Shown piece by piece: positions 1 through 33,649 of a stretch of DNA of 64,000 bases. The stretch spans positions 2,542,001-2,606,000 of the forward strand of contig NZ_CP132294.1 in NCBI RefSeq assembly GCF_030734285.1. The letters are read 5' to 3'. A program made the translations under genes and the position numbers. Origin of the DNA: Natronococcus sp. AD-5. GTDB lineage: Archaea; Halobacteriota; Halobacteria; Halobacteriales; Natrialbaceae. Each line of letters opens with the position of its first letter. The first letter of the stretch is position 1. A model generated the notes under the pieces. That model was given only the letters and a program-made list of their open reading frames with translations, ran no database searches and was not told the origin of the DNA.

Positions 1-406
1 CACACTGCACACAGGCAGTGTCCCTCTCCGTCTCCTGTCGGGACGTACGGCGCTGGCCCTGATCGGGGTCGGGTTCGGTTGCCGTGACTCGAGCGTCGGG
101 CTGACCCCCGCTCCGAACCTGTTCGCCCTCGAGCGAGATCGTGACGTTCACGTCCTGCGGCTGGGACGCTGGCTGTCGGCGACCACCGGCCCGGCGGTCG
201 CCGAGTCGCTCCGTGAGGAGGTCGTCGACGCGCTCTCGAACCAGATCGTCGATCGCGGTCTCCGTCGTCCGTTCCGTCGACGCGGACTGCCCCTCGTCCG
301 CGAGGAAGGCTCGCAGCGCCTCCCGCATGACTTCGCTTTTGGACGCGTCGAGCTCCTCGAGTTGCGCGACGAGGTCGTCGTCCGCCCGGAACGTGATCTT
401 GCTCAT
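1..406 (-). CDS. Ribbon-helix-helix (CopG-like) DNA-binding protein, N-terminal part, cut by window edge
   Basis: The complement read from the ATG at 404-406 stays open to the left edge (134 codons). Residues 1-40 (MSKITFRADDDLVAQLEELD, then a helix with SKSEVMREALRAFL) form a ribbon-helix-helix fold: one beta strand and two helices that bind DNA as a dimer. Residues 45-120 are acidic and Arg-rich linker. The last visible residues are C-V-Q-C, a CxxC pair suggesting the start of a zinc ribbon. Haloarchaea carry RHH proteins of this type (CdrS/CdrL) that regulate the cell-division gene ftsZ2, so a division regulator is possible, but ftsZ2 would lie outside the window and cannot be checked. RHH fold is fairly sure; target unknown. 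Confidence 0.8.
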   Translation of the reverse strand, partial: MSKITFRADDDLVAQLEELDASKSEVMREALRAFLADEGQSASTERTTETAIDDLVRERVDDLLTERLGDRRAGGRRQPASQPQDVNVTISLEGEQVRSGGQPDARVTATEPDPDQGQRRTSRQETERDTACVQC

Positions 407-534
407 GGTCGCAAGCTATCACTACGTTAATAGTCCATCTATATCAATCATTCCTCTGAACACGAATTACCGTACCGACATCGTCACCGAGAATGATAAC
501 CCTTATGTCGCCTACAGCGGCTACGTATGAGTGA

Positions 535-608
535 CCGCTCTTAGCTCAGCCTGGTAGAGCAGCCGACTGTAGATCGGCTTGCCCCCCGTTCAAATCGGGG
601 AGAGCGGA
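535..608 (+). tRNA. tRNA-Tyr (GTA)
   Basis: A 7-bp acceptor stem pairs CCGCTCT (535-541) with AGAGCGG (601-607), followed by discriminator A608. The D arm carries AGCTC...GAGC, the anticodon arm is GCCGA / loop CTGTAGA / TCGGC giving anticodon GTA, and the T arm is CCCCG-TTCAAAT-CGGGG. The C1-G72 pair is the archaeal/eukaryal tyrosine identity element. There is no intron and no encoded CCA. An AT-containing stretch (ataaccctta) about 35 bp upstream is a plausible promoter. The 3' end is partly duplicated at 715-737. Confidence 0.97.
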
Positions 609-737
609 CTGATTTTCCGCGAACAAACTGGTGAGCGGAAAGCACGTCCAATCGAGCCGATTGAAACACGGAAGTCGCAGCGCGCGAACGAGGTAAGCGC
701 GGCCGTCTTACGGCGTTCAAACCGGGGAGGGCGGACT
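588..737 (+). repeat. Partial duplication of the tRNA-Tyr 3' end (possible att scar)
   Basis: The T-arm and acceptor 3' strand of tRNA-Tyr (588-610) recur at 715-737 with 21 of 23 positions identical (differences at the 8th and 16th bases). Weak similarity continues past the tRNA end (gattttccgcg versus gatttcgccgcg). The second copy has no anticodon or 5' acceptor half, so it is not a tRNA gene. Such duplications are the usual mark of a tyrosine integrase that uses a tRNA 3' end as attachment site; only about 105 bp now lie between the copies and no integrase is visible. Confidence 0.6.
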
Positions 738-2603
738 CCGATTTCGCCGCGCAGTAGTTGAACGGACACCGGCGTTTACGGCCATTGTAAGCGCTCTGTC
801 TTCGTTTTTGCCGTAGAATAGGTGCGGCTCGAACTCGTCCCGTTATTCGTTCGACGATCGACTCGAACGGTAATCGATAGCACCCTACACGTCGACGTAC
901 GCGCGTATAGTTGATCAGAGACGCCGGTTCGGACTCCGTCGGCGATCGGCGGAGAGCGTACGTGAGGGCCGATAACTGCTTCTCGAGGTTCCGCGGTAAC
1001 GTACGAAGCGTCGGACAGTCGTTCCTGGCGAGTCGATCGTCCGACGCGTCGGGTACGGCACATGCGACGGCGCGCGAGTCAGACGGACTCGAGCAGTCAA
1101 CATGCTTCTCGAGCGACGTCCGCGAGTACGAAATCGCTGGAGTCGCAACGGCATCGTTCTCTTCCGATCGGCTGGATCTTTCCGCCGGGCCGTTTCCCTG
1201 TGACGTACGCGGAGTCACAGCTTCCACACGCAGCCGGAACTCGAGAAACGTGTTTCCTTCGGTCCATACTTCAGCGTACGCTACGCGGGAGTGCTCGAAC
1301 TTGTTTTACCCGCCCGTAAACGCACAGTGAGCGCCTCTCGACGCGGCACCGACGAGTAACACTGGTAATTCGCGACGGGTTCGACCGCTCGGTCCTCGAG
1401 AACCCGCAGGCGATGGCAGTCACATTCGCGACTGTACTGGAAGCACCGAATTGGCAAACGGATAACGATCGAGCGGCTGTAGCGGCGAGCATGAGTCGAA
1501 AATACGGCGACGTTTCGCGCTCGGAAACATTCTCGAGCGATCGTCCAGAATACGAAACGAACGACGACCCGTCAGTTCGACGTGAAAGTCACGATAATCC
1601 GGTCAAAAACTCTTCAACTCGAGCGCACGGTCGCCGCGTTCAATATCCCAGCAGCCCCTGGATGAGTACGCCGGAGGTCAGAGGCACCGCGATCGAGGCC
1701 GAATGGATGCCGCGAGAGGGAATCCATTCGTCCGATCCCGACACACCATCTTCCCCACCATCGTTCAAACCCTTTTTACCGGGCATCGCTACCGATGACA
1801 CGCGAAAAGCGAGAGAAGACGGCAGCGGTATGCTAAACGTGTGGAACGATCTGCGTCGCGTGGGTGCTGTCCGACGGAAATCGTTCCGGTTAGCGCCATC
1901 GTCGATTGCGAGTGCGGTGAGGCCGCACTACGCGCACTCGAGGGGCCCGAGATACGATTGGAGGCCGAGTGAGACGCGACGACCGTTTGCTCGAGTAGCG
2001 TGACAGCGTTCGACCGGCCTTCCGTCTTGCCTACCGCCGGTCGACGGTTACCCCTTCAGAGAACAGTCGTAGCGGTTCTAGTCACGGTATTATAACCGCA
2101 TTCGAAATACTCGAGGACGAACCGGTCGGCGGACGAGAAGCGTGGGGCCGAACCCGACCCAGCGTACCTGCAGTTGTCATCCGCGGACGCTGATGCCCGT
2201 AGGACCTGCCGGAGATGACGCGAGTGGACCGCCGCTCGAACCCAATCAATTATACAAAACCATTATAGATAGTCTCGTCGAAGTTTCGTGCCGGGCTGGG
2301 ATGGTAGGTGGTAGTCATGATTTCGAGATCCAGCCCATCCGCCCCTTCGTAATCGTATCCCCGAAAGCGAGCGCCGACGACGGCGTAGCTGCTCGAGGAA
2401 GATCGTCCCTGCGGTAGCGGGAGCGAACGGGTGGTAACCGGTGGTTCGGCCGCTACTACCGCAGGATGTGAACCGACGTGCGGGTGAAGAATAAGACCCG
2501 CGGAATGTGGCAAACCGCACATCGAGGGGTTCGAAGTCGAAGTCCGCTCGGACACGCTCTCGCCGGCAGACGGCTTTTATCGCGTCTCGTGTTAGCCGTA
2601 GGT
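738..2603. other. Gene-poor stretch downstream of tRNA-Tyr
   Basis: Nearly 1.9 kb contains no reading frame that looks like a haloarchaeal protein. The open frames present have mixed third-position use, are rich in Ser/Arg, lack acidic character and match no family I recognise. The DNA is visibly richer in A and T than neighbouring genes. A TATA-like tattataa lies near 2089-2096. The complement of about 2250-2380 reads as a more protein-like tail (RFRGYDYEGADGLDLE) but I cannot assign it. Best read as decayed accessory DNA, possibly the remains of an element that entered at the tRNA. Confidence 0.5.
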
Positions 2604-2990
2604 ATGAGCGAGGACGGACCGAGTCGTGACCGCGCACAGGATCGCGCCGAGCAGCGCAAGTCGCGGCGGGCCGACGAGACCGAATCGATCCTCGGGGACG
2701 TCGAGCGACACCTCGGGGAGCTCGAGTATCCGATCACGAGCGAGGAAATCGCTTCCGAGTACGGCAACGAGCCGATCGACATGCCCAACGAGACGGAGTC
2801 GCTCGGCAGCGTCTTCGATCGACTGGCCGGCGAGGAGTACGACTCGCCCGAGGAAGTCCGCGAAGCCGTCTACGGCGAGGTGACGGGCGAGGCCGGCGAC
2901 AGACAGGAAGCGAATCCCGAACGCGATCTCGATCAGCTGGACGAGCAGAAGCAGGGATCGGCCGGCGAGAGCGGCAGCGACGCGCTCTAA
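2604..2990 (+). CDS. Small acidic haloarchaeal protein, DUF5789-like
   Basis: A 128-residue soluble, strongly acidic protein. The ATG at 2604 is chosen because the protein becomes acidic and family-like from MSEDGPSR, whereas the upstream in-frame extension is basic and unlike haloarchaeal protein. The core (residues 25-85) reads as a small helical domain with ELEYPITSEEIASEYG and a DSPEEVREAVYGEV segment, the pattern of the haloarchaeal DUF5789 family; the tail is Glu/Gln-rich and disordered. No enzyme motif is present. It precedes aIF2-beta by 69 bp in the same direction. Function unknown. Confidence 0.75.
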   Translation: MSEDGPSRDRAQDRAEQRKSRRADETESILGDVERHLGELEYPITSEEIASEYGNEPIDMPNETESLGSVFDRLAGEEYDSPEEVREAVYGEVTGEAGDRQEANPERDLDQLDEQKQGSAGESGSDAL

Positions 2991-3059
2991 GCCGGTCGGT
3001 TCGGCGCCGGCGACCGCGAGAGCAGAACCGATTTACGTCAGCGTCGTTTTCACTCGAGT

Positions 3060-3671
3060 ATGGATTACGAGTCGAGTCTCAACCGAGCGATGGACGAAGT
3101 GCCGGACATCGGCGGCGACGAGAGCCGTCTGGATATCCCCGATCCGGAAACGCAGAAAGACGGCGCGTTTACGCGGTTCAGGAACCTGGGCGATATCGCC
3201 GACGTGCTCTCGCGCGAGGACGAACACGTCCACCGGTTCATCCAGCGCGAGATGGGGACCAGCGGCAAACTCGAGAACGGCCGCGGCCGGTACAACGGGA
3301 CCTTCTCCGAGCAGGACTTCAGCGCGGCGATCGACGCCTACGTCGACGAGTACGTCCTCTGTTCGGAGTGTGGCCTGCCGGACACCCGCCTCGTCCGCGA
3401 GAACCGCACCCCGATGCTGCGCTGTGACGCCTGCGGTGCGTTCCGCCCCGTCACGAAGCGCTCCTCGAGCAGCCAGCAACAGCAGCAGGCCGACGCCGTC
3501 GAAGAGGGCGAGACTTACACGGTCGAGATCACCGGCACCGGTCGCAAGGGCGACGGCGTCGCGGAGAAAGGCAGTTACACGATCTTCGTCCCCGGCGCGG
3601 AGGAGGGTGACGTCGTCGACATCTACATCAAGAACATCTCCGGCAACCTGGCGTTCGCTCGACTCGCCTGA
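3060..3671 (+). CDS. eif2b: Translation initiation factor aIF2 subunit beta with TRAM domain
   Basis: Beta subunit of the heterotrimeric GTPase factor that delivers initiator Met-tRNA to the small ribosomal subunit. Residues 1-95 carry the N-terminal helix and alpha/beta core (GAFTRFRNLGDIADVL, GKLENGRGRYNG). A zinc ribbon follows with C101-C104 and C122-C125. Residues 146-203 are an added TRAM domain (ETYTVEITGTGRKGDGVA...IKNIS), an RNA-binding beta barrel seen fused to this subunit in haloarchaea. Length 203 residues against about 140 for aIF2-beta without TRAM. A run of Ser and Gln (about 135-143) links the two. Assignment is secure. Confidence 0.96.
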   Translation: MDYESSLNRAMDEVPDIGGDESRLDIPDPETQKDGAFTRFRNLGDIADVLSREDEHVHRFIQREMGTSGKLENGRGRYNGTFSEQDFSAAIDAYVDEYVLCSECGLPDTRLVRENRTPMLRCDACGAFRPVTKRSSSSQQQQQADAVEEGETYTVEITGTGRKGDGVAEKGSYTIFVPGAEEGDVVDIYIKNISGNLAFARLA

Positions 3672-3739
3672 TTCGGCGGCTCGTTCTTCCGGTTCGTTCA
3701 GACCCGTCAGTTCCTCGTTCGAGCCACGGCGGTAGCCCG

Positions 3740-4210
3740 CTAACACGCACTCGAGGCGGCGTCGGGAAGGCGAACGACCTTCTCGCGGCCGACCCGATAC
3801 CGTTCGACCACCCCTCGCCGCTCGAGATCCGTCAGGAGGCGGCTGACGGTCGACGACGACCAGCCGTACTCCTCGACGAGACGGCACTGTTTGAACCGCC
3901 CGTCGTGCTTCTCGAGAACCGCGCGCACGTACTCTTCGGGAGTGAACCCGTACTCGAGCAATTCGCTGCGACTGGTCGGGCCGTCGTCGGAGTCGACGAG
4001 CGCTGCCTGGTGCTCGTTCTCGAACGACTCCGCGTCCGAGGCAGCCCCCTGGTTGCGTCGCTTCACGGCGGAACCGGAGTTCGCCGGTTCCTCGCGTAGC
4101 CTGGCGGTGAAATCGGTCAACAGCTGTTCGACGTGGGAGACGCAGCGCCGGCTCAGTCGGCCGGTACGGGCGACCAGCCGCGAGACGGGCGAAGCCTGGC
4201 GGTAACTCAT
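3740..4210 (-). CDS. Winged-helix DNA-binding regulator
   Basis: A 156-residue protein convergent with aIF2-beta. The C-terminal third (about 90-148) is a winged helix: YVRAVLEKHDGRFKQ, then a recognition-helix segment EEYGWSSSTVSRLLTDLERRG and a wing VERYRVGREKVVRLP, as in haloarchaeal MarR/DUF7343-type domains. Residues 1-80 are Arg-rich and then acidic, without a recognisable domain and without clear membrane segments. Target unknown; it is followed divergently by the M24 homologue, so control of that gene is possible but unproved. Confidence 0.8.
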   Translation of the reverse strand: MSYRQASPVSRLVARTGRLSRRCVSHVEQLLTDFTARLREEPANSGSAVKRRNQGAASDAESFENEHQAALVDSDDGPTSRSELLEYGFTPEEYVRAVLEKHDGRFKQCRLVEEYGWSSSTVSRLLTDLERRGVVERYRVGREKVVRLPDAASSAC

Positions 4211-4400
4211 TCGTAATCGACTCCGAACTGGCGGGTAAAAGCGCTATTCGCAAATCCGTCCAAACGTCCGCGACCGACGCGAACCGGAGCGCGGACAGTT
4301 CGGCTGAACGCGCCGCGGCCGGCGAGCCGATCCCTCGAGGGGCACAGCAGACCGTGCCCCCACGACTAGATACTTTGTACCACCGTCCGTCCCGGCAACC

Positions 4401-5606
4401 ATGGCAACGAAACTTCCGGCGAACGAGTTCGAGGACCGCCTCGAACGCGTTCGCGACCGTCTCGCGGAGACGGACGCCGACGCCGGCGTCTGGTTCGGCG
4501 CGACGAGCATCGAGTACCTCACCGGCTTCGATCACATCCAGACCGAGCGGCCGGTCGTCCTCGCGGTGACGGCCGACCGAATCGAGATCACGGTGCCGCG
4601 CCTCGAGGTCGAGCGCGTGAGCGCGAACTCCCGGATCGACGCGGTCCACCACTACGACGACTACCCGGGCGGGCAGCCGATCCGGACGGTCGTCGACATG
4701 CTCGAGGGGCTGAGCGTCGACCGCGTCGCGGCGGACTCCGAAGGTGCACCCGGAACGATGGGCTACCAGGGGCCGCCGCTGACCGAATTCGTCAGCGTCG
4801 AGACCCAGGGGTGGGCGTCGCGGCTGCGCTGGGAGAAGTCGGACGCGGAGGTCGACCTGATCCGCGAGTCCGCCACGTGGGCGAACCTGGGCCATCGCTA
4901 CCTCGCGGACTACACCGAACCCGGCGCACACCCGGCGACGGCGAGCCAGCGAGCGTCCGCGGACGCCTCGCGGGCGATGCTGGACGCGCTGGGCGAGCGC
5001 TACGTTCCGCGAACCCGCGGCGACGGGCCCGTCAGCGCGGGCTACATCGCGGGCGAGCAGACCCGGCTCCCGCACGGTCACACGGCGAACCGACGCCTCG
5101 AGGAGGGAGACGCGCTGATCACGGGCGCGACGGCGAACGTCGACGGCTACCGCTCCGAACTCGAGCGGACGATGTTCGTCGGCGAGCCGAGCGACGAGCA
5201 GGCCCACTACTTCGAACTCATGCTCGAGGCGCAGGATATCGCGATCGAGGCGCTCGGCCCGGGCGTCCCGATCGCGGCCGTCGACCGGGCGGTCCGGAAC
5301 TACTTCGAGGAGCAGGGCGTCGCGGACCTCGCCCAGCACCACGTCGGACACAACATCGGCCTCGGCGGCCACGAACCGCCGTACATCGACCGAGGCTGGG
5401 GCGACCACTGCGAGTCCGACCACACGAGCTACGACGCCGACGACGCGGCGATGCGACCGGGCCACGTCTGGACGATCGAACCCGGGATCTACACGGAGAC
5501 GGACGGCTACCGCCACTCCGATACGATCGCCATCACCGAGGACGGGATCGAGTGGCTGACGCACTATCCGCGAGACCTCGAGTCGAACGTCGTTCCGGTC
5601 GAATAA
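4401..5606 (+). CDS. M24 (creatinase/Xaa-Pro peptidase fold) protein with altered metal ligands
   Basis: A 401-residue protein with an N-terminal creatinase-like domain (1-140, including WFGATSIEYLTGFDH) and a C-terminal pita-bread domain (145-390). Of the five metal ligands of M24 peptidases, H317 (GHNIGLGGHE), E360 (TIEPG) and E380 (TEDG) are present, but the aspartate of the DxGA motif is T241 and that of SDxTRT is E253. It may bind metal differently or have left peptidase chemistry, as creatinase did. A box gatactttgta sits about 25 bp upstream of ATG 4401. Fold secure; Xaa-Pro dipeptidase activity doubtful. Confidence 0.85.
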   Translation: MATKLPANEFEDRLERVRDRLAETDADAGVWFGATSIEYLTGFDHIQTERPVVLAVTADRIEITVPRLEVERVSANSRIDAVHHYDDYPGGQPIRTVVDMLEGLSVDRVAADSEGAPGTMGYQGPPLTEFVSVETQGWASRLRWEKSDAEVDLIRESATWANLGHRYLADYTEPGAHPATASQRASADASRAMLDALGERYVPRTRGDGPVSAGYIAGEQTRLPHGHTANRRLEEGDALITGATANVDGYRSELERTMFVGEPSDEQAHYFELMLEAQDIAIEALGPGVPIAAVDRAVRNYFEEQGVADLAQHHVGHNIGLGGHEPPYIDRGWGDHCESDHTSYDADDAAMRPGHVWTIEPGIYTETDGYRHSDTIAITEDGIEWLTHYPRDLESNVVPVE

Positions 5607-5681
5607 TCAGCGCCGGCACGACGTAGCGCCAGTCTCGCGCCGACCGCGAGAGTAAAGTCAACTTGTGCTAGTCACACTACC

Positions 5682-6329
5682 GTGGCAGTCTCGTTCGACC
5701 TCTTCGGAACGCTCGTCGACGCCGACCAGCCCGCGGATCCCGCGGCAGCCGTCGCCGACGAACTCGAGGCCCGCGGCGTCGACGTGCCGCCGGATTGGGA
5801 CGAGGCGTACGCCAGTCCGCACGTCGACGCGCCGGACGGCGCGGAGGTGCCGCTTCCGGCGCACGTCGACCGGGCGCTCGCGAGCCGCGGCGTCGCGTAC
5901 GAGAACAACGCCGTCAGACGAGCGGTCGTCGCGACGTTCGATCCCGAGGTCGAGACCAGAGTCGGCGCGCGCGAGGCCGTCGCCGCCGCTCGAGAACGCG
6001 GCCCGGTCGCGATCTGCTCGAACTGCAGCGTCCCGGAACTCGTCGCGCGGACGCTCGTCCGATCCGAGTTCGAGCGCGACGACTTCGACGCGATCGTGAC
6101 GAGCGTCGCCTGCGGCTGGCGCAAACCCGCGCCCGAAATATTCGAACTGGCCGCCGACGAACTCGGCGTCCGGCCGGCCGACCTCGTCCACGTCGGCGAC
6201 GACCCCCGAACGGACGGCGGCGTCGAAGCCGCCGGCGGAACGGCGATCCTGCTCGAGGACGTTCCGCTCCGCGACGTCGGTGCGCGACTGGCGGCTCTCG
6301 AGGAGAGCGAGGGAGGGACCGAAGCGTGA
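5682..6329 (+). CDS. HAD-superfamily hydrolase, first gene of the cobamide operon
   Basis: A 215-residue HAD protein. Motif I is FDLFGTLVD (D6 nucleophile), motif II S113 in ICSNCS, motif III K148 in WRKPAPEIF, motif IV HVGDD (D173/D174). The second residue after the nucleophile aspartate is F8 rather than Asp, a pattern nearer haloacid-dehalogenase-type members than classical phosphatases. Start is GTG 5682; an AT box (agtaaag, 5651-5657) precedes it by about 28 bp. It sits 37 bp before cbiB and leads the operon. An alpha-ribazole-phosphate or cobamide-phosphate phosphatase is otherwise missing from the set, so that role is a reasonable inference. Confidence 0.82.
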   Translation: MAVSFDLFGTLVDADQPADPAAAVADELEARGVDVPPDWDEAYASPHVDAPDGAEVPLPAHVDRALASRGVAYENNAVRRAVVATFDPEVETRVGAREAVAAARERGPVAICSNCSVPELVARTLVRSEFERDDFDAIVTSVACGWRKPAPEIFELAADELGVRPADLVHVGDDPRTDGGVEAAGGTAILLEDVPLRDVGARLAALEESEGGTEA

Positions 6330-18039: not shown

Positions 18040-18933
18040 TCAGTCGCCACCCCCTCCCTTCTCTATCGGCGCCCGGATCAAATTCCCCCACTCGGTCCAC
18101 GATCCGTCGTAGTTGTGGACGTCCTCGTACTCGAGCAACTCGTGGAGCGCGAACCACGCGATCGCGGAGCGCTCGCCGACGCGGCAGTAGGTGACGACCG
18201 TTTCCTCGCCGTCGATCCCCTGGTCGGCGTACATCTCCTCGAGTTCGTCGGGTGCCTTGAACCGGCCGTCGTCGCGCAGGTTCGTCTTCACCGGCACGTT
18301 CGAGGCGCCGGGAATGTGACCGCCGCGCTGGGCCGTCTCCTGCAGCCCTTCCGGGGCGATGATCTCGCCGGAGAACTCCTCGGGCGAGCGGACGTCGACC
18401 ATCGGAATGCCGGCCTCGCGGGCCTTGTCGACGTCGTCTTGGTAGGCGCGGATGCTCTCGAATGGACCCTTCGCGGTGTACTCGACGGAACCGAAATCGG
18501 GCTCCTCGTCGGTGAGCGGGTAATCCTCGTTCACCCAGTAATCCTTTCCGCCGTCCAGGACGCGAGCGTCGTCATGGCCGTAGTACTTGAACTCCCAGTA
18601 GGCGAACAGCGCGAACCAGTTGGGGATCCAGCCGTCGCCGTAGAAGACGACCGTCGAGTCCTCGCTGACGCCGTGCTCGCCGACCACGGCCTCGAAGTCG
18701 CCTTTCTTGAGGATGTCCCGCTGATCCTGATCGGAGAGGTCCTCGTCCCACTGCAGTCCGATCGCGCCCGGGATGTGGCCCTCGTCGTACCGCGAGGGGA
18801 AGTCGCCCTCGTCGGGCGACTCGGGGCTGTTGACTTCCACGAGACGGTAGTCGGGATCGTCGTCTTGGAACTCCTCGAGGTGGTCTTCGACCCAATCCGC
18901 CGAAACCAGAACGTCGGTGTCGTGCTCGGACAT
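18040..18933 (-). CDS. Two-domain sulfurtransferase (thiosulfate/3-mercaptopyruvate type)
   Basis: A 297-residue tandem rhodanese. The C-terminal domain carries the catalytic C250 in the loop CRVGERS plus VDVRSPEEFSGE and GGHIPGASNVP. In the N-terminal domain the equivalent loop reads YGDGWIPN with no cysteine, so it is structural, as is usual for this enzyme class. It would move sulfane sulfur from thiosulfate or mercaptopyruvate to cyanide, thiols or protein acceptors. The start ATG 18933 opens an acidic N-terminus. The first of two 33-bp repeats lies 42 bp upstream. Confidence 0.92.
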   Translation of the reverse strand: MSEHDTDVLVSADWVEDHLEEFQDDDPDYRLVEVNSPESPDEGDFPSRYDEGHIPGAIGLQWDEDLSDQDQRDILKKGDFEAVVGEHGVSEDSTVVFYGDGWIPNWFALFAYWEFKYYGHDDARVLDGGKDYWVNEDYPLTDEEPDFGSVEYTAKGPFESIRAYQDDVDKAREAGIPMVDVRSPEEFSGEIIAPEGLQETAQRGGHIPGASNVPVKTNLRDDGRFKAPDELEEMYADQGIDGEETVVTYCRVGERSAIAWFALHELLEYEDVHNYDGSWTEWGNLIRAPIEKGGGGD

Positions 18934-18974
18934 GCGACGGTGGCTCCGACGAGTAGCGGCAAAAACGTAACACG

Positions 18975-20484
18975 GGACGGAACGACACGTCCGAAATCGA
19001 ACTGGTACGCTACACCGCTGAAATCCCCACTCTCGACCTCCCAGCGGCAGCTACGAGGCCGACCCCGAAACGCTTCGACGATACTCGAGTAGCCGCGTCC
19101 GACCCGGGTGTGACGATCCACGAATCTGGTGAGTAGTATTATGAATTCCGAGTTACACGATCGAGTATGAACCGTCGAACGCTACTGGTGCTGTCCGGTT
19201 CCTCGCTGTCGGCCGGGGGTGCGGGCTGCACCGACGTGGACACGCTAGGTGGAGACGACGGACGCACGGACTCGAGCGACGAAATCGGGTCGGACGACGA
19301 GAAGCACTCAGAGACGGACGGGGACGACGCCGGTCACGACCTTCTCGTGTTGGCAGACGGGAGATCTGACGGAAAGAATATCCACGCCGGGACGACGGTA
19401 ACGAGCTACGGATACGACGAGAAAAACGACGCCTTTCAGCGGTCCGGTCGGTATCGGATCGACGAAATCGAAGCGCGGCTCATCAACTCGGTCGACGTGA
19501 TCGACGACGGGTGCGTGATCTCGAGAGGATCCAGATCCGTCGCCGTTCCCGACGCGGACCGATCGATTATCACGGTGCTGGATTCGGAGATGACGGTGCG
19601 AGAAACCGCCGATGTCGAGGGCCTGTACACGCTCACGTCCGACGGCGAATACATCTACGCGGCGTCCGAGATCGGCTTCACCGTGTTCGACGCGGAGCTG
19701 AACACGGTCGGACGGACCGCTCTCGAGGACGAGTTCGGAAACAAGCACATGGAGGACGTGGTCGTCCACGACGGTGTCGCCTACATCGTCGATAACGTCG
19801 TCAAGCCGATGTTACTGTTCAGAGTCGACGTTTCGGACCCGTCGAATCCGGAGTACCTGGAAGTCGTTGCCGTGCTCGGGACGAACCAATCGCTGGGTCA
19901 GCAGGCGATCGATCCGGACGCAAACAGGTGGCTGTGTCTTCAGACGACCGGCGGTAGGGCGGGCAGTTCTCAGAACGTGCTCGTCACTCCGATGGAGGGC
20001 GCCGAATCGGATGGCGACGAGGACATCGATATCCGAGCCAGGGATGAGATAGAGAGCGAAACCGTCTACGAGTACGACCGCGAATCCGATTCGTCCGAGG
20101 GGACGTACGTCGAAGACATCACCGCCCAACCACCGCTTTACGCGTCTGTCACCGTCGACGAGAGCCACTATCTGTCGTCGGTCACGATAGACGACGGGGA
20201 GGACGGCGTCACCTTCGGACTCGAGATCGAACTGGATTCGTCGGCCAGGGTCGATATCCTCGACGGACGCGTCGTCGCGCTGTCCAAAGACATGGACGGC
20301 GGTCGGCTGATCGTCTACGATCCGGAAACGGACGAACGCAGCGTCGACCAAGAACTGGACGGCGATTTGCCGCTGGAAATACAGGCGAGAGGGCCGTAAG
20401 AGGCCGAACGCACGATGCGTCCGCAGCCGAGCACCAGCAACGGGGACCGCCGGACGGAACGACACGTTCGAAATCGAACCGGTA
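18975..20484 (+). repeat. 33-bp direct repeat pair flanking a lipoprotein gene
   Basis: Positions 18975-19007 and 20452-20484 share 31 of 33 bases (starting ggacggaacgacacg). Each copy stands upstream of a gene pointing outward: the sulfurtransferase (start 18933, minus) and the FAH-family gene (start 20518, plus). The second copy contains the perfect inverted repeat GTTCG-AAAT-CGAAC (20466-20479); the first has one mismatch in it. The pair encloses about 1.45 kb with a single gene. It could be a duplicated operator region or the scar of an insertion into one intergenic region. Confidence 0.65.
19167..20399 (+). CDS. Tat-exported lipoprotein, probable beta-propeller
   Basis: A 410-residue protein. 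MNRRTLLVLSG is a twin-arginine signal and AGGAGC supplies a lipobox-like cysteine (C21), so it should be anchored outside the membrane. A Ser/Asp-rich linker (22-55) follows. Residues 60-405 contain repeated strand motifs such as TSYGYDEKNDAFQ, ITVLDSEMTVRET, LYTLTSDGEYIYAASEIGFTVFDAEL and RLIVYDPETDE, suggesting beta-propeller blades. No enzyme motif is seen. Its codon use is less G/C-biased than its neighbours and it is bracketed by direct repeats, so it may have been inserted. Function unknown. Confidence 0.78.
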   Translation: MNRRTLLVLSGSSLSAGGAGCTDVDTLGGDDGRTDSSDEIGSDDEKHSETDGDDAGHDLLVLADGRSDGKNIHAGTTVTSYGYDEKNDAFQRSGRYRIDEIEARLINSVDVIDDGCVISRGSRSVAVPDADRSIITVLDSEMTVRETADVEGLYTLTSDGEYIYAASEIGFTVFDAELNTVGRTALEDEFGNKHMEDVVVHDGVAYIVDNVVKPMLLFRVDVSDPSNPEYLEVVAVLGTNQSLGQQAIDPDANRWLCLQTTGGRAGSSQNVLVTPMEGAESDGDEDIDIRARDEIESETVYEYDRESDSSEGTYVEDITAQPPLYASVTVDESHYLSSVTIDDGEDGVTFGLEIELDSSARVDILDGRVVALSKDMDGGRLIVYDPETDERSVDQELDGDLPLEIQARGP

Positions 20485-20517
20485 GGTCTACGCGGCTGGA
20501 CGTCGCGGTACCCGACG

Positions 20518-21240
20518 ATGCGACTCGCGAGGATCGCGATCCCCGACGGACCGGTTACCGGACGTTACGAGGACGGCGTCGTTCGCGCCGACGACGGCAG
20601 CTACGAGGTCGGCACCGACGGCGAACTGCTCCCGCCCTGCGACCCCTCGGCGCTGTACTGCGTGGGTCGCAACTACGCGGCGACCCTGGCGCAGATGGAG
20701 TACGACCGACCCGACGAACCCGATTTCTTCATCAAACCGCCGGCGTCGCTGCTGGCCCACGAGGAACCGATTCCCTACCTCGAGTTTACGAACGAACTGA
20801 CCTACGCCGGCGAGCTCGCGGCCGTCATCGACGAGCGCTGTCACGACGTTTCGGAGGACGAGGTGTCCGACGTCGTGCGCGGCTACACGATCATGAACGA
20901 CGTCGACGCGCTCGACCAGCAGGGCCGGACCGCGCGAAAGGCCTTCGACGGCTCCGGGCCGCTCGGCCCGTGGCTCGAGACCGACCTCGACCCGACGGAA
21001 ATCGACATGCACACCGACGTCGCCGGCGAGCGCCGCCAGGAGGCGAACACGGAGCTGATGCTGTTCGATCCGTACGAAGTCGTCGCGTACCTCTCGAAAC
21101 GCTTTACCTTCCGCCCGGGAGACGTCGTCGCCTTCGGCAGTCCCGCGAATCCCGGGCTCGTCGAGCCGGGTGACACCGTCGAGATCACCTACGAGGGCGT
21201 CGGCACCCTCCGGAACACGGTCGTCGACTCGAGCGAGTGA
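20518..21240 (+). CDS. Fumarylacetoacetate hydrolase (FAH) family protein
   Basis: A 240-residue FAH-fold enzyme. Landmarks are LYCVGRNYAATLAQM (about 43-57), PDFFIKPPASL, the metal-binding glutamates in NELTYAGELAAVIDER (about 97-112), the aspartate of GYTIMNDVDALD (about 122-133), and FGSPANPGLVEPGDTVEI near the end. The family includes fumarylpyruvate hydrolase, 2-keto-3-deoxy-sugar dehydratases and oxaloacetate decarboxylases; the substrate cannot be told from sequence and no aromatic-degradation genes lie nearby. The second 33-bp repeat with an inverted repeat ends 33 bp upstream. Confidence 0.88.
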   Translation: MRLARIAIPDGPVTGRYEDGVVRADDGSYEVGTDGELLPPCDPSALYCVGRNYAATLAQMEYDRPDEPDFFIKPPASLLAHEEPIPYLEFTNELTYAGELAAVIDERCHDVSEDEVSDVVRGYTIMNDVDALDQQGRTARKAFDGSGPLGPWLETDLDPTEIDMHTDVAGERRQEANTELMLFDPYEVVAYLSKRFTFRPGDVVAFGSPANPGLVEPGDTVEITYEGVGTLRNTVVDSSE

Positions 21241-22120: not shown

Positions 22121-22633
22121 GTGAGCACGGAGGGTTCCCGCCGCGTCGAAGTCTACCCCGACCGCGAGGTCGTCGTCGAGTTCGATCCCGAACTCACCTT
22201 CGAGTGCGTCGACGATTGCACCTGGTGCTGCCAGCACGGGGTCTTGCTCTACGACCAGGACCTCCTCGAACTCGCCCAGCGGGCGAACCTCGCCGAGACG
22301 ACGACGGACTTTCGCGGCGAGAAGTTCGTCACCCGCGAGGAGAAAGACCGCGACGAGCACGTCGCCGACGACGGCTGCGCCTGCGCTTTCCTCCGCGAGG
22401 ACGGGCTCTGTTCGCTCCACCTCGAGGAGGACTGGAAGCCGACCCGCTGTTCGGTCTTTCCGCTCGGCGTCTGGCTCGAGGACGGCGACCTCCACGTGGA
22501 CATCCGCGACTCGGCCCGCGAGCACTGCGAGGGACTGAACGTCAGCGAGCGGTCGGTCGTCGACAACCTCGAGGCGTTCCTGCCGGAAGTGCTGTGGGAC
22601 CTCGAGAACCCGGATTCGGACCGGGAACTGTAG
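22121..22633 (+). CDS. YkgJ-family cysteine-cluster protein
   Basis: A 170-residue protein with the YkgJ arrangement of cysteines: CVDDCTWCCQHG (about 28-39), then GCACAFLREDGLCSLH (about 84-99), KPTRCSVFPLG (about 107-117) and a later C in REHCEGL. These are thought to bind an iron-sulfur cluster or zinc. The GTG at 22121 starts an acidic N-terminus without signal peptide, so it is cytosolic. The family has no settled function. No neighbour suggests a pathway. Confidence 0.85.
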   Translation: MSTEGSRRVEVYPDREVVVEFDPELTFECVDDCTWCCQHGVLLYDQDLLELAQRANLAETTTDFRGEKFVTREEKDRDEHVADDGCACAFLREDGLCSLHLEEDWKPTRCSVFPLGVWLEDGDLHVDIRDSAREHCEGLNVSERSVVDNLEAFLPEVLWDLENPDSDREL

Positions 22634-32383: not shown

Positions 32384-33649
32384 ATGAAACGGATCGCCCT
32401 TCTCGTCGCGGCTCTCGTGATAACAGCTCCCCTGGTCGGCGCCGGAACCGTCGTCGCATCCGATAACGTGACGCTGACGGTGACTGTTACCGACGACGAC
32501 GAGAACGCCGTCGGCGGCGCACAGGTCGCGGCGTCGTGGGACGACGGCGAGCGCACGGACGAAACGCGATCGAACGGACGGGCGCTGATCGACGTTCCGA
32601 GCGGCGCGGACGTCGAGGTCGACGTCGAACACGACGACCTCGTCCTGAACAACCCGAAGGAAGTGGGGACGGTCAGCGACCACACGACGGTCGCCGTCGA
32701 CCTCTACCCCGAAATCGACGGCGAGATCACGATCGTCGAAAACGACACGCCGATCGCCGACGCGACGGTCACGCTCACCAAAGACGGCGACACCCGCGCC
32801 GCGGCCGCGGGGACGACCGACGACGACGGCGTCTTCGTAGCCGAGGGGGTCGAGGTCGGCAGCTACGACGTCGACGTCGAAAAGGCGGGCTACTACGACG
32901 AGTCGACGGACGTCGACCTGCGATCGACGGACGGAACGACCGTCGCGCTCGAGTCGGGGACCGAACGGGTCACCTTCTCCGTCGTCGAGGGCTACTTCGA
33001 CGAGCCGCTGCGGACCGACGTCACGATCCTGCAAGACGGCGTTCGCGACGCGACGCTCTCGACGAACGCCGACGGCGAGCGGACCATCCCGCTCGTGGTC
33101 AACACGGAGTACACGGCCGTCATCGAGGACGACGGCTACGACGACGCGAGCAACGAACGCGAGTTCACCGTCGGCGAGTCCGCGACCGAGGTCGACTACG
33201 TGGTCGAGCGCGCCCCCGCGCTGACGCTCGAGGCGTCTAACGAGCGCGTCCTCGTCGGAGAAACCGTCGGCGTCGAGGTGACCGACGAGTACGGCGACCC
33301 GGTCGACGACGCCGAAATCGTCCTCGACGGCTCGACCGCCGCCACGACGGACGCCGACGGCGAGGCGAGCGTGACGATCGAAACGCACGGCGAACTCGAG
33401 TTGACGGCTCAGGACGGGGGCGTCACGGATACGATCGTGATCGACGGCGTCGATCCCGACGCGACCAACGACTCCCCGACGGAGGAGCGAAGCGAGGTCG
33501 AGAACGCGTCCGACGGCGACGCCGACGAGTCGATCCCCGGGTTCGGCGCCGGCGCGGCCGGCGTCGCGCTGGCCCTGGTTCTCGGGGGTGCGATCGCGTA
33601 CCGTCGCCGCTCTCGTCGCGGCCTCGACGGTCGATCGCGTACACCGTGA
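32384..33649 (+). CDS. Secreted PGF-CTERM surface protein with Ig-like/carboxypeptidase-regulatory repeats
   Basis: A 421-residue exported protein: Sec signal (1-25, LLVAALVITAPLVGAGTVVA), then four or five beta-sandwich repeats (LTVTVTDDDENAVGGAQV; GEITIVENDTPIADATVTL; RVTFSVVEGYFDEPLRTDV; LVGETVGVEVTDEYGDPV), an acidic linker, and IPGFGAG followed by a transmembrane helix and Arg cluster. PGF-CTERM marks cleavage and lipid anchoring by archaeosortase. A gaatttaag box lies about 30 bp upstream. The last dozen residues (after RRRS) lie antisense to an alpha/beta-hydrolase fossil, so the natural end may have been lost. Confidence 0.85.
   Translation: MKRIALLVAALVITAPLVGAGTVVASDNVTLTVTVTDDDENAVGGAQVAASWDDGERTDETRSNGRALIDVPSGADVEVDVEHDDLVLNNPKEVGTVSDHTTVAVDLYPEIDGEITIVENDTPIADATVTLTKDGDTRAAAAGTTDDDGVFVAEGVEVGSYDVDVEKAGYYDESTDVDLRSTDGTTVALESGTERVTFSVVEGYFDEPLRTDVTILQDGVRDATLSTNADGERTIPLVVNTEYTAVIEDDGYDDASNEREFTVGESATEVDYVVERAPALTLEASNERVLVGETVGVEVTDEYGDPVDDAEIVLDGSTAATTDADGEASVTIETHGELELTAQDGGVTDTIVIDGVDPDATNDSPTEERSEVENASDGDADESIPGFGAGAAGVALALVLGGAIAYRRRSRRGLDGRSRTP

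What the first reader, a model, noticed from the sequence alone, without database searches (positions are those of the whole stretch)
18975..20484. 33-bp direct repeats with an internal palindrome bracket a Tat lipoprotein gene
The 31/33 match is far beyond chance. Each copy lies upstream of an outward gene (sulfurtransferase, FAH enzyme), and one contains GTTCG-AAAT-CGAAC. The gene between has different composition. Either a gene was inserted into one regulatory region and duplicated it, or both outer genes share an operator.
Basis: partly seen in the sequence, partly recalled or inferred. Interest (0 to 1): 0.55.

Follow-up and report, generated by a model that had tools for sequence, protein, structure and literature searches.

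The report
Gene inserted into duplicated haloarchaeal promoter
In one salt-loving archaeon a lipoprotein gene without known relatives appears to have been inserted between two back-to-back neighbour genes, and part of the promoter region they shared was copied on the way, so the repeats are most likely the scar of that insertion; this is a tidy but fairly ordinary genome event.

Summary
The 33-bp direct repeat is real (31/33, 1,477 bp apart; next best + strand match in the window 21/33). I read it as the scar of a lineage-specific insertion. In all 8 congeners held (genus Natronococcus) the rhodanese-type sulfurtransferase gene (ST) and the FAH-family gene are directly divergent, 106-107 bp apart; 22 of 34 scorable junctions in the family have 105-120 bp. 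The window's two flanks with one repeat copy add up to 107 bp. The lipoprotein gene (LP) was found in no other genome searched; weak matches only.

A 24-bp core of the repeat is a conserved element, found at this junction once per congener and twice here. Its right half lies ~40 nt before the FAH start even in many loci without ST nearby, so it looks like FAH promoter. In the 2 relatives that keep ST but lack FAH the core is decayed. I read the right copy as the working FAH promoter and the left copy as a remnant beside ST.

A second, weaker match (21/24) suggests that the duplication reached into FAH codons 26-34, so the 33 bp would be what survives of a longer copy. A many-site operator is not supported. 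The route of insertion is inferred.

The parts
18040..18933 (-). ST: two-domain rhodanese / 3-mercaptopyruvate-type sulfurtransferase gene, left neighbour
   Evidence: Pfam Rhodanese 2.2e-31; NCBIfam PRK11493 7.3e-39, below its cut-off
18960..18974 (-). TATA-like stretch for ST (TGTTACGTTTTTG on the minus strand), 27-41 nt before the ST start; inferred
   Evidence: conserved in the junction alignment and kept in the two genomes where ST stands without FAH (by eye)
18975..19007 (+). left copy of the 33-bp repeat; its 24-bp core is 18984-19007
19045..19068 (+). probable relic of the FAH coding start (matches 20595-20618, 21/24), collinear with the core but 73 bp closer to it
19134..19147 (+). 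TATA-like stretch of LP (TAGTATTATGAATT), 20-33 nt before its start; inferred by eye
   Evidence: read from the sequence
19167..20399 (+). LP: probable Tat lipoprotein, 410 aa, no convincing homologue; faint resemblance to LVIVD/beta-propeller proteins
20452..20484 (+). right copy of the 33-bp repeat; its 24-bp core 20461-20484 is identical in N. pandeyae and two Natrialba junctions (L075, L121)
20466..20479 (.). palindrome GTTCGAAATCGAAC in the right copy
   Evidence: sequence; half-site symmetry kept in 9 of 16 junctions
20477..20490 (+). inferred FAH core promoter (RAAYCGGTANNNCTA type), starts 41 nt before the FAH start
   Evidence: motif in 28 of 67 distinct FAH loci without ST in the flank, 15 of 17 with ST at <=120 bp, 4 of 7 with a wider gap; 4 of 4,600 shuffled 60-mers
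20518..21240 (+). FAH: fumarylacetoacetate-hydrolase-family gene, right neighbour
   Evidence: Pfam FAA_hydrolase 1.2e-51
20595..20618 (+). FAH codons 26-34, source of the putative relic at 19045-19068

Best explanation
The repeats are the scar of one insertion. The ancestor had ST and FAH divergent with about 107 bp between them. In the window's lineage a DNA piece with the lipoprotein gene LP entered there, and a segment that begins at the repeat and probably runs at least 167 bp, into FAH, ended up on both sides. The right copy kept its attachment to FAH and serves as its promoter; the left copy stayed beside ST, where its FAH half was redundant and eroded to the 33-bp core plus a scrap of FAH. 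Shown: empty site in relatives, LP found only here, repeat, conservation of the core, association of its right half with FAH. Inferred: the longer extent of the duplication, that the right copy drives FAH, that the left copy is dispensable, and the route, most simply single-crossover (pop-in type) integration of a circle carrying LP and a piece of the FAH promoter and 5' end, or template switching during repair.
For: Empty site: 8 of 8 congeners have ST and FAH adjacent at 106-107 bp; window flanks with one repeat copy give 74+33=107. Of 38 family genomes (125 searched) with an ST match at E<=1e-140, 34 can be scored: 22 at 105-120 bp, 10 at 232-402 bp, G009 at 3,384 bp with another gene, and the window at 1,584; not scored: G030 and G017 (no FAH orthologue), G127 (split over contigs), G095 (no FAH match at the cut-off). 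LP: 3 of 61, 11 of 125 and 13 of 392 genomes (overlapping sets, own genome included) give a match at E<=1e-3, but all except the own gene have E>=1.5e-4 and <=22.1 bits; none in genome contigs, plasmids or viral contigs. Core: mean pairwise identity 0.886 over 24 bp in 16 junctions against 0.52 and 0.60 for its flanks. Relic: score 33 against 18.9+-2.7, reached by 0 of 500 shuffles and 4 of 2,877 random window segments; the only other genomic places within 3 mismatches of the joint pattern are three with 3. FAH and ST both have G004 and G001 as nearest of the 8 congeners in protein identity (93-95%), so FAH looks native.
Against: The relic is a 24-bp match found after the fact and needs deletions before it; the first 16 nt after the left core match the right copy no better than 5.9% of random window 16-mers. 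A plain 33-bp target duplication would explain the rest. The inferred FAH box (CTAC) does not fit the TTWT word proposed for haloarchaeal TATA boxes (PMC4983044, passages). A trace of the right half (CAAACCAGTAGGC) may survive beside ST in G030, and the left half is seen only where ST is adjacent, so a role of the core for ST is not excluded. No donor, no circle and no expression data are known. G009 holds another gene at this place without such a repeat.
Confidence: 0.72

Rival explanations
1. Simple insertion with an exact 33-bp target-site duplication (long staggered break filled in), and the FAH-like scrap at 19045 is a coincidence.
For: The right border is abrupt and the 33-bp boundaries are clean; the sequence just after the left core is not clearly related to the right copy.
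Against: The 21/24 match is collinear, shares the form of this clade's FAH (sequences printed) and exceeds all 500 shuffles. Target duplications of 33 bp are unusual for haloarchaeal insertion sequences (recalled). No transposase family in LP or in the two other insert-overlapping minus-strand frames tested, and no inverted repeat with arms at both insert ends.
Confidence: 0.25
2. Site-specific recombination: the repeats are attL/attR of a small element moved by a tyrosine recombinase acting in trans; the imperfect palindrome is the crossover core.
For: Direct repeats of about 30 bp with an internal palindrome around a single cargo gene have this layout (recalled from Xer/dif-type modules).
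Against: The element is conserved in genomes without any insert; no integrase match in the insert frames tested; no LP relatives in viral or plasmid collections; the other gene seen at this place (G009) has no such repeats.
Confidence: 0.06
3. Two operators of one regulator, kept in both copies because ST and FAH are co-regulated through the palindrome.
For: The core is conserved over Natronococcus and Natrialba and symmetric in 9 of 16 junctions, with both TTCG..CGAA and TCCG..CGGA forms; both copies persist at 31/33; the left half occurs only where ST is adjacent (13 of 17 short-gap loci, 0 of 74 others).
Against: One site per congener genome at this junction; two further 3-mismatch hits in the 8 congeners. 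Symmetry broken in 7 of 16 junctions and in the window's left copy. The right half goes with FAH without ST; the core decays when FAH is absent and ST stays, in the 2 genomes seen.
Confidence: 0.15

Closest known systems
Insertion-duplication (single-crossover, pop-in) integration (recalled)
   Same: foreign gene flanked by direct copies of a resident segment, one copy leading into the intact gene, the other truncated
   Different: here a natural event; left copy eroded; no vector sequence seen; donor unknown
Lineage-specific ORFan gene insertions in prokaryotic genomes (recalled)
   Same: single gene of lower GC3, found in one genome, absent from congeners
   Different: sits inside a conserved divergent promoter and left a promoter duplication
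Insertion-sequence target-site duplication (recalled)
   Same: direct repeat on both sides of an insert
   Different: 33 bp or more, no transposase family match, no terminal inverted repeats found

Membership tests
lineage-specific gene insertion | relatives carry the uninterrupted site | tested here: met
   8 of 8 congeners; 22 of 34 scorable family junctions at 105-120 bp
lineage-specific gene insertion | inserted gene absent elsewhere in relatives | tested here: met
   only the own gene is a strong match in 61, 125 and 392 genomes; in the larger sets only a capped number of first-look candidates was scored per genome
insertion-sequence transposition | transposase or terminal inverted repeats in the insert | tested here: not met
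   no family match for LP or for the two other frames of >=100 aa tested that overlap the insert; no inverted repeat with arms at both insert ends; smaller frames not searched
insertion-duplication by homologous recombination | duplicated segment longer than a target duplication and collinear with the resident gene | tested here: inconclusive
   core plus 21/24 FAH relic; the sequence between is not significantly similar
multi-site regulator operator | further copies upstream of other genes | tested here: not met
   24-bp pattern, <=3 mismatches, 9 genomes: one junction hit per congener, two in the window genome, three further 3-mismatch hits in all, whose contexts were not read
multi-site regulator operator | dyad symmetry conserved by compensating changes | tested here: inconclusive
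   symmetric in 9 of 16 junctions (5 TTCG..CGAA, 4 TCCG..CGGA), broken in 7
haloarchaeal Tat lipoprotein | twin arginine, then lipobox Cys with 12-21 residues between | tested here: inconclusive
   RR at 3-4, Cys 21, 16 between, but lipobox GAGC deviates from the LAGC type (sequence; PMC2945643 passages); no predictor run

The most novel reading that the evidence does not exclude
A gene without known relatives can settle inside a tight divergent promoter without harm because the integration copies the promoter, so each neighbour keeps its own; such promoter duplications would be a general tolerated route for new genes into compact haloarchaeal genomes.
Probability: 0.15. Interest if true: 0.5.

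Novelty: new member of a known kind. Interest (0 to 1): 0.28.

Why it matters
It gives a clean before/after picture of a gene arriving in a shared promoter region, with the empty site in every congener held, and it separates two halves of a conserved element (one that goes with FAH, one seen only where ST is adjacent). Beyond that it is one event in one lineage.

Tried and rejected
Genome-wide operator: rejected. The 17-bp palindrome search (109 hits at <=3 mismatches against 1 for the reversed control) was not used as evidence: the excess may reflect how common CGAA/TCGA words are in this genome (my reading, not tested), and most listed hits have 3 mismatches. Three places with 1 mismatch exist (L036, L037, L038); their contexts were not read.

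Other repeat pairs of this kind: in 464 kb (window plus 20 stretches of 20 kb) pairs at >=29/33 with spacing 60-6,000 occur in 11 of 21 pieces. I looked at 5 isolated pairs in 4 pieces (L158, L159, L164, L171); all ten copies lie in mechanical reading frames of 230 aa or more, so they look like coding similarity. The pairs in L152, L153, L161, L162, L166 and L168 were not inspected.

Structure of LP: single-sequence prediction failed (mean pLDDT 36.1); no fold search was made. Pfam gives only LVIVD at E=5.1. Two of the proteins that weakly match LP residues 192-252 carry LVIVD (1.9e-10, 9.6e-13; the others were not scanned), hence the faint beta-propeller lead.

The insert as DNA gave matches at E<=0.01 in 23 of 31 genomes, but outside its own place all are short and <=46.4 bits, taken as chance. 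No match of the 3.4-kb region to phage records.

Similarity of the right insert end to the ST side: no better than shuffles (420 of 500 reach it).

Literature: searches are search listings; nothing on this locus was seen in those 4 searches. Passages were read in PMC4983044 and PMC2945643 only.

Full report
Observation. The two 33-bp copies are at 18975-19007 and 20452-20484, 31/33 identical, on the same strand. Nothing else in the window comes near (next best 21/33; 300 random 33-mers reach at most 26). The finding is real and at the stated place.

Genes. Left: a rhodanese / 3-mercaptopyruvate-type sulfurtransferase on the minus strand. Right: an FAH-family gene on the plus strand. Between: a 410-aa frame with a twin-arginine start and a Cys at 21. 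It has GC3 0.78 against 0.88 for its neighbours, no family assignment and no match among solved structures by sequence.

Empty site. The genome belongs with Natronococcus: the contig of same-genus genome G001 has the length of the N. pandeyae record, that of G003 the N. amylolyticus record, that of G007 the N. jeotgali record. In all 8 congeners ST and FAH are divergent neighbours with 106-107 bp between the start codons. Of 109 FAH loci examined (30, 79, with duplicates), 35 have ST divergent and near, giving 26 distinct sequences: 19 with gaps of 105-119 bp and 7 with 232-405 bp. None of these gaps could hold LP, and LP is matched in none of the 109 loci but the window's own. The window's flanks with a single repeat copy add up to 107 bp. 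In the family-wide searches (125 genomes) 38 have an ST match at E<=1e-140. Of the 34 that can be scored against, 22 have gaps of 105-120, 10 of 232-402, G009 has 3,384 bp and the window 1,584 bp. Left out: G030 and G017 (no FAH orthologue; best 3.7e-48 and 1.1e-47), G127 (split over contigs), G095 (no FAH match at the cut-off).

The inserted gene. Searches of 61, 125 and 392 genomes (overlapping sets) gave matches at E<=1e-3 in 3, 11 and 13 genomes, the own genome included; apart from LP itself all have E>=1.5e-4 and at most 22.1 bits and cover the N-terminal part or a stretch of the middle. In the larger sets only 14 or 4 first-look candidates per genome were scored, so a distant relative could be missed. 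LP was not found in genome contigs, plasmids or viral contigs; the contig searches look for close relatives only, and 'own or very near' records may be left out there.

What the repeat is. Aligning 20 junctions shows a 24-bp core, GACACGTYCGAAAYCGRAYCGGTA, conserved over Natronococcus and Natrialba: mean pairwise identity 0.886 in 16 junctions, as high as the start of ST (0.887) and above its own two flanks (0.52, 0.60; the ST-side 41 bp have 0.81). I chose these 16 because they carry the core type, the window's right copy among them; four junctions (L054, L060, L016, L018) do not and were left out of that figure, as was the window's left copy. The core occurs once per congener at this junction and twice in the window genome; three further hits with 3 mismatches exist among the 9 genomes. 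CGAAA is the proposed haloarchaeal BRE word; the proposed TATA word TTWT is not matched by the FAH box CTAC (PMC4983044, passages). Half-site symmetry of the palindrome is kept in 9 of the 16 and broken in 7.

Which gene it serves. A motif for the right half, [AG]A[ACT]CG[GA][TC]A-N3-[CA]TA, lies at -39 to -47 from the FAH start in 28 of 67 distinct FAH loci with no ST in the flank, 15 of 17 with ST at <=120 bp, 4 of 7 with a wider gap and in the window, against 4 of 4,600 shuffled 60-mers. The motif was written after looking at these sequences. The left half, GAYACGTYCGAA, is in 13 of 17 short-gap loci and in 0 of 74 others; this also tracks phylogeny. 'No ST' means none within the stored flank, at most 1.5-3 kb. 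G030 and G017 keep ST (91% and 86%) without the FAH orthologue; their next gene is the homologue of the window's 22121-22633 gene (86-87%). There the TATA-like stretch of ST is kept and the core is decayed, with a possible trace of the right half in G030 (reading by eye). So the core looks mainly like FAH promoter; need for it by ST is neither shown nor excluded.

Extent of the duplication. After the left core a 24-bp stretch (19045-19068) matches FAH codons 26-34 (21/24), collinear but 73 bp closer. Its score is reached by 0 of 500 shuffles and by 4 of 2,877 random window segments of the same length, the best of them higher (39 against 33). In the whole genome the only other places within 3 mismatches of the joint pattern are three with 3, one of them in the window at 32857. 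The stretch directly after the core is not convincing on its own (18 of 2,000 shuffles, but 293 of 5,000 random 16-mers reach it). I take the longer duplication as likely, not shown. The right copy has a sharp left border: its upstream 52 bp do not resemble the ST side (420 of 500 shuffles reach the score).

Same place in another genome. In G009 another gene (1,028 aa; FAD-oxidase_C 3e-55, FAD_binding_4 5.1e-42, 4Fe-4S) lies between ST and FAH, with no promoter-sized direct repeat on both sides. A gene can thus come to lie here without such a duplication, though the older state of that lineage is not known.

Mechanism. Best supported: one insertion with duplication of the FAH promoter side, followed by erosion of the redundant left copy. 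The left copy carries a change in the FAH half (AACTGGTA) while the right copy is intact. The route (single-crossover integration or template switching) is inference.

Novelty. An instance of a known kind of event. The interesting part is the duplicated promoter that may spare both neighbours; one case does not show that this is general.

Noticed in passing
L202:1805-4891 (G009): A different large gene (1,028 aa, FAD-oxidase plus 4Fe-4S by Pfam) lies between ST and FAH in a relative, without flanking promoter repeats.
   Followed up: partly
L203 (G030), L204 (G017): Two relatives lack the FAH orthologue while keeping ST; in both the next gene is the homologue of the window's 22121-22633 gene, which suggests a clean FAH loss.
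   Followed up: partly
L111, L116, L119: FAH copies 69-73% identical to the haloarchaeal one in Longimonas halophila and in MAGs labelled Rhodothermaceae and Bacteroidetes: a possible transfer between domains.
   Followed up: no
window:21660-22031: Small HTH regulator downstream of FAH (Pfam TrmB 1.5e-10; NCBIfam Sta1 5.8e-16, below cut-off); present in G001, but in G004 (L002) FAH is followed directly by the 22121-22633 homologue.
   Followed up: no
L068: In Natronorubrum bangense the FAH locus is on a record titled as a plasmid.
   Followed up: no
L162:3560-5400: Dense repeats with a period near 430 bp in the window's own genome, perhaps a repetitive coding gene; not read.
   Followed up: no
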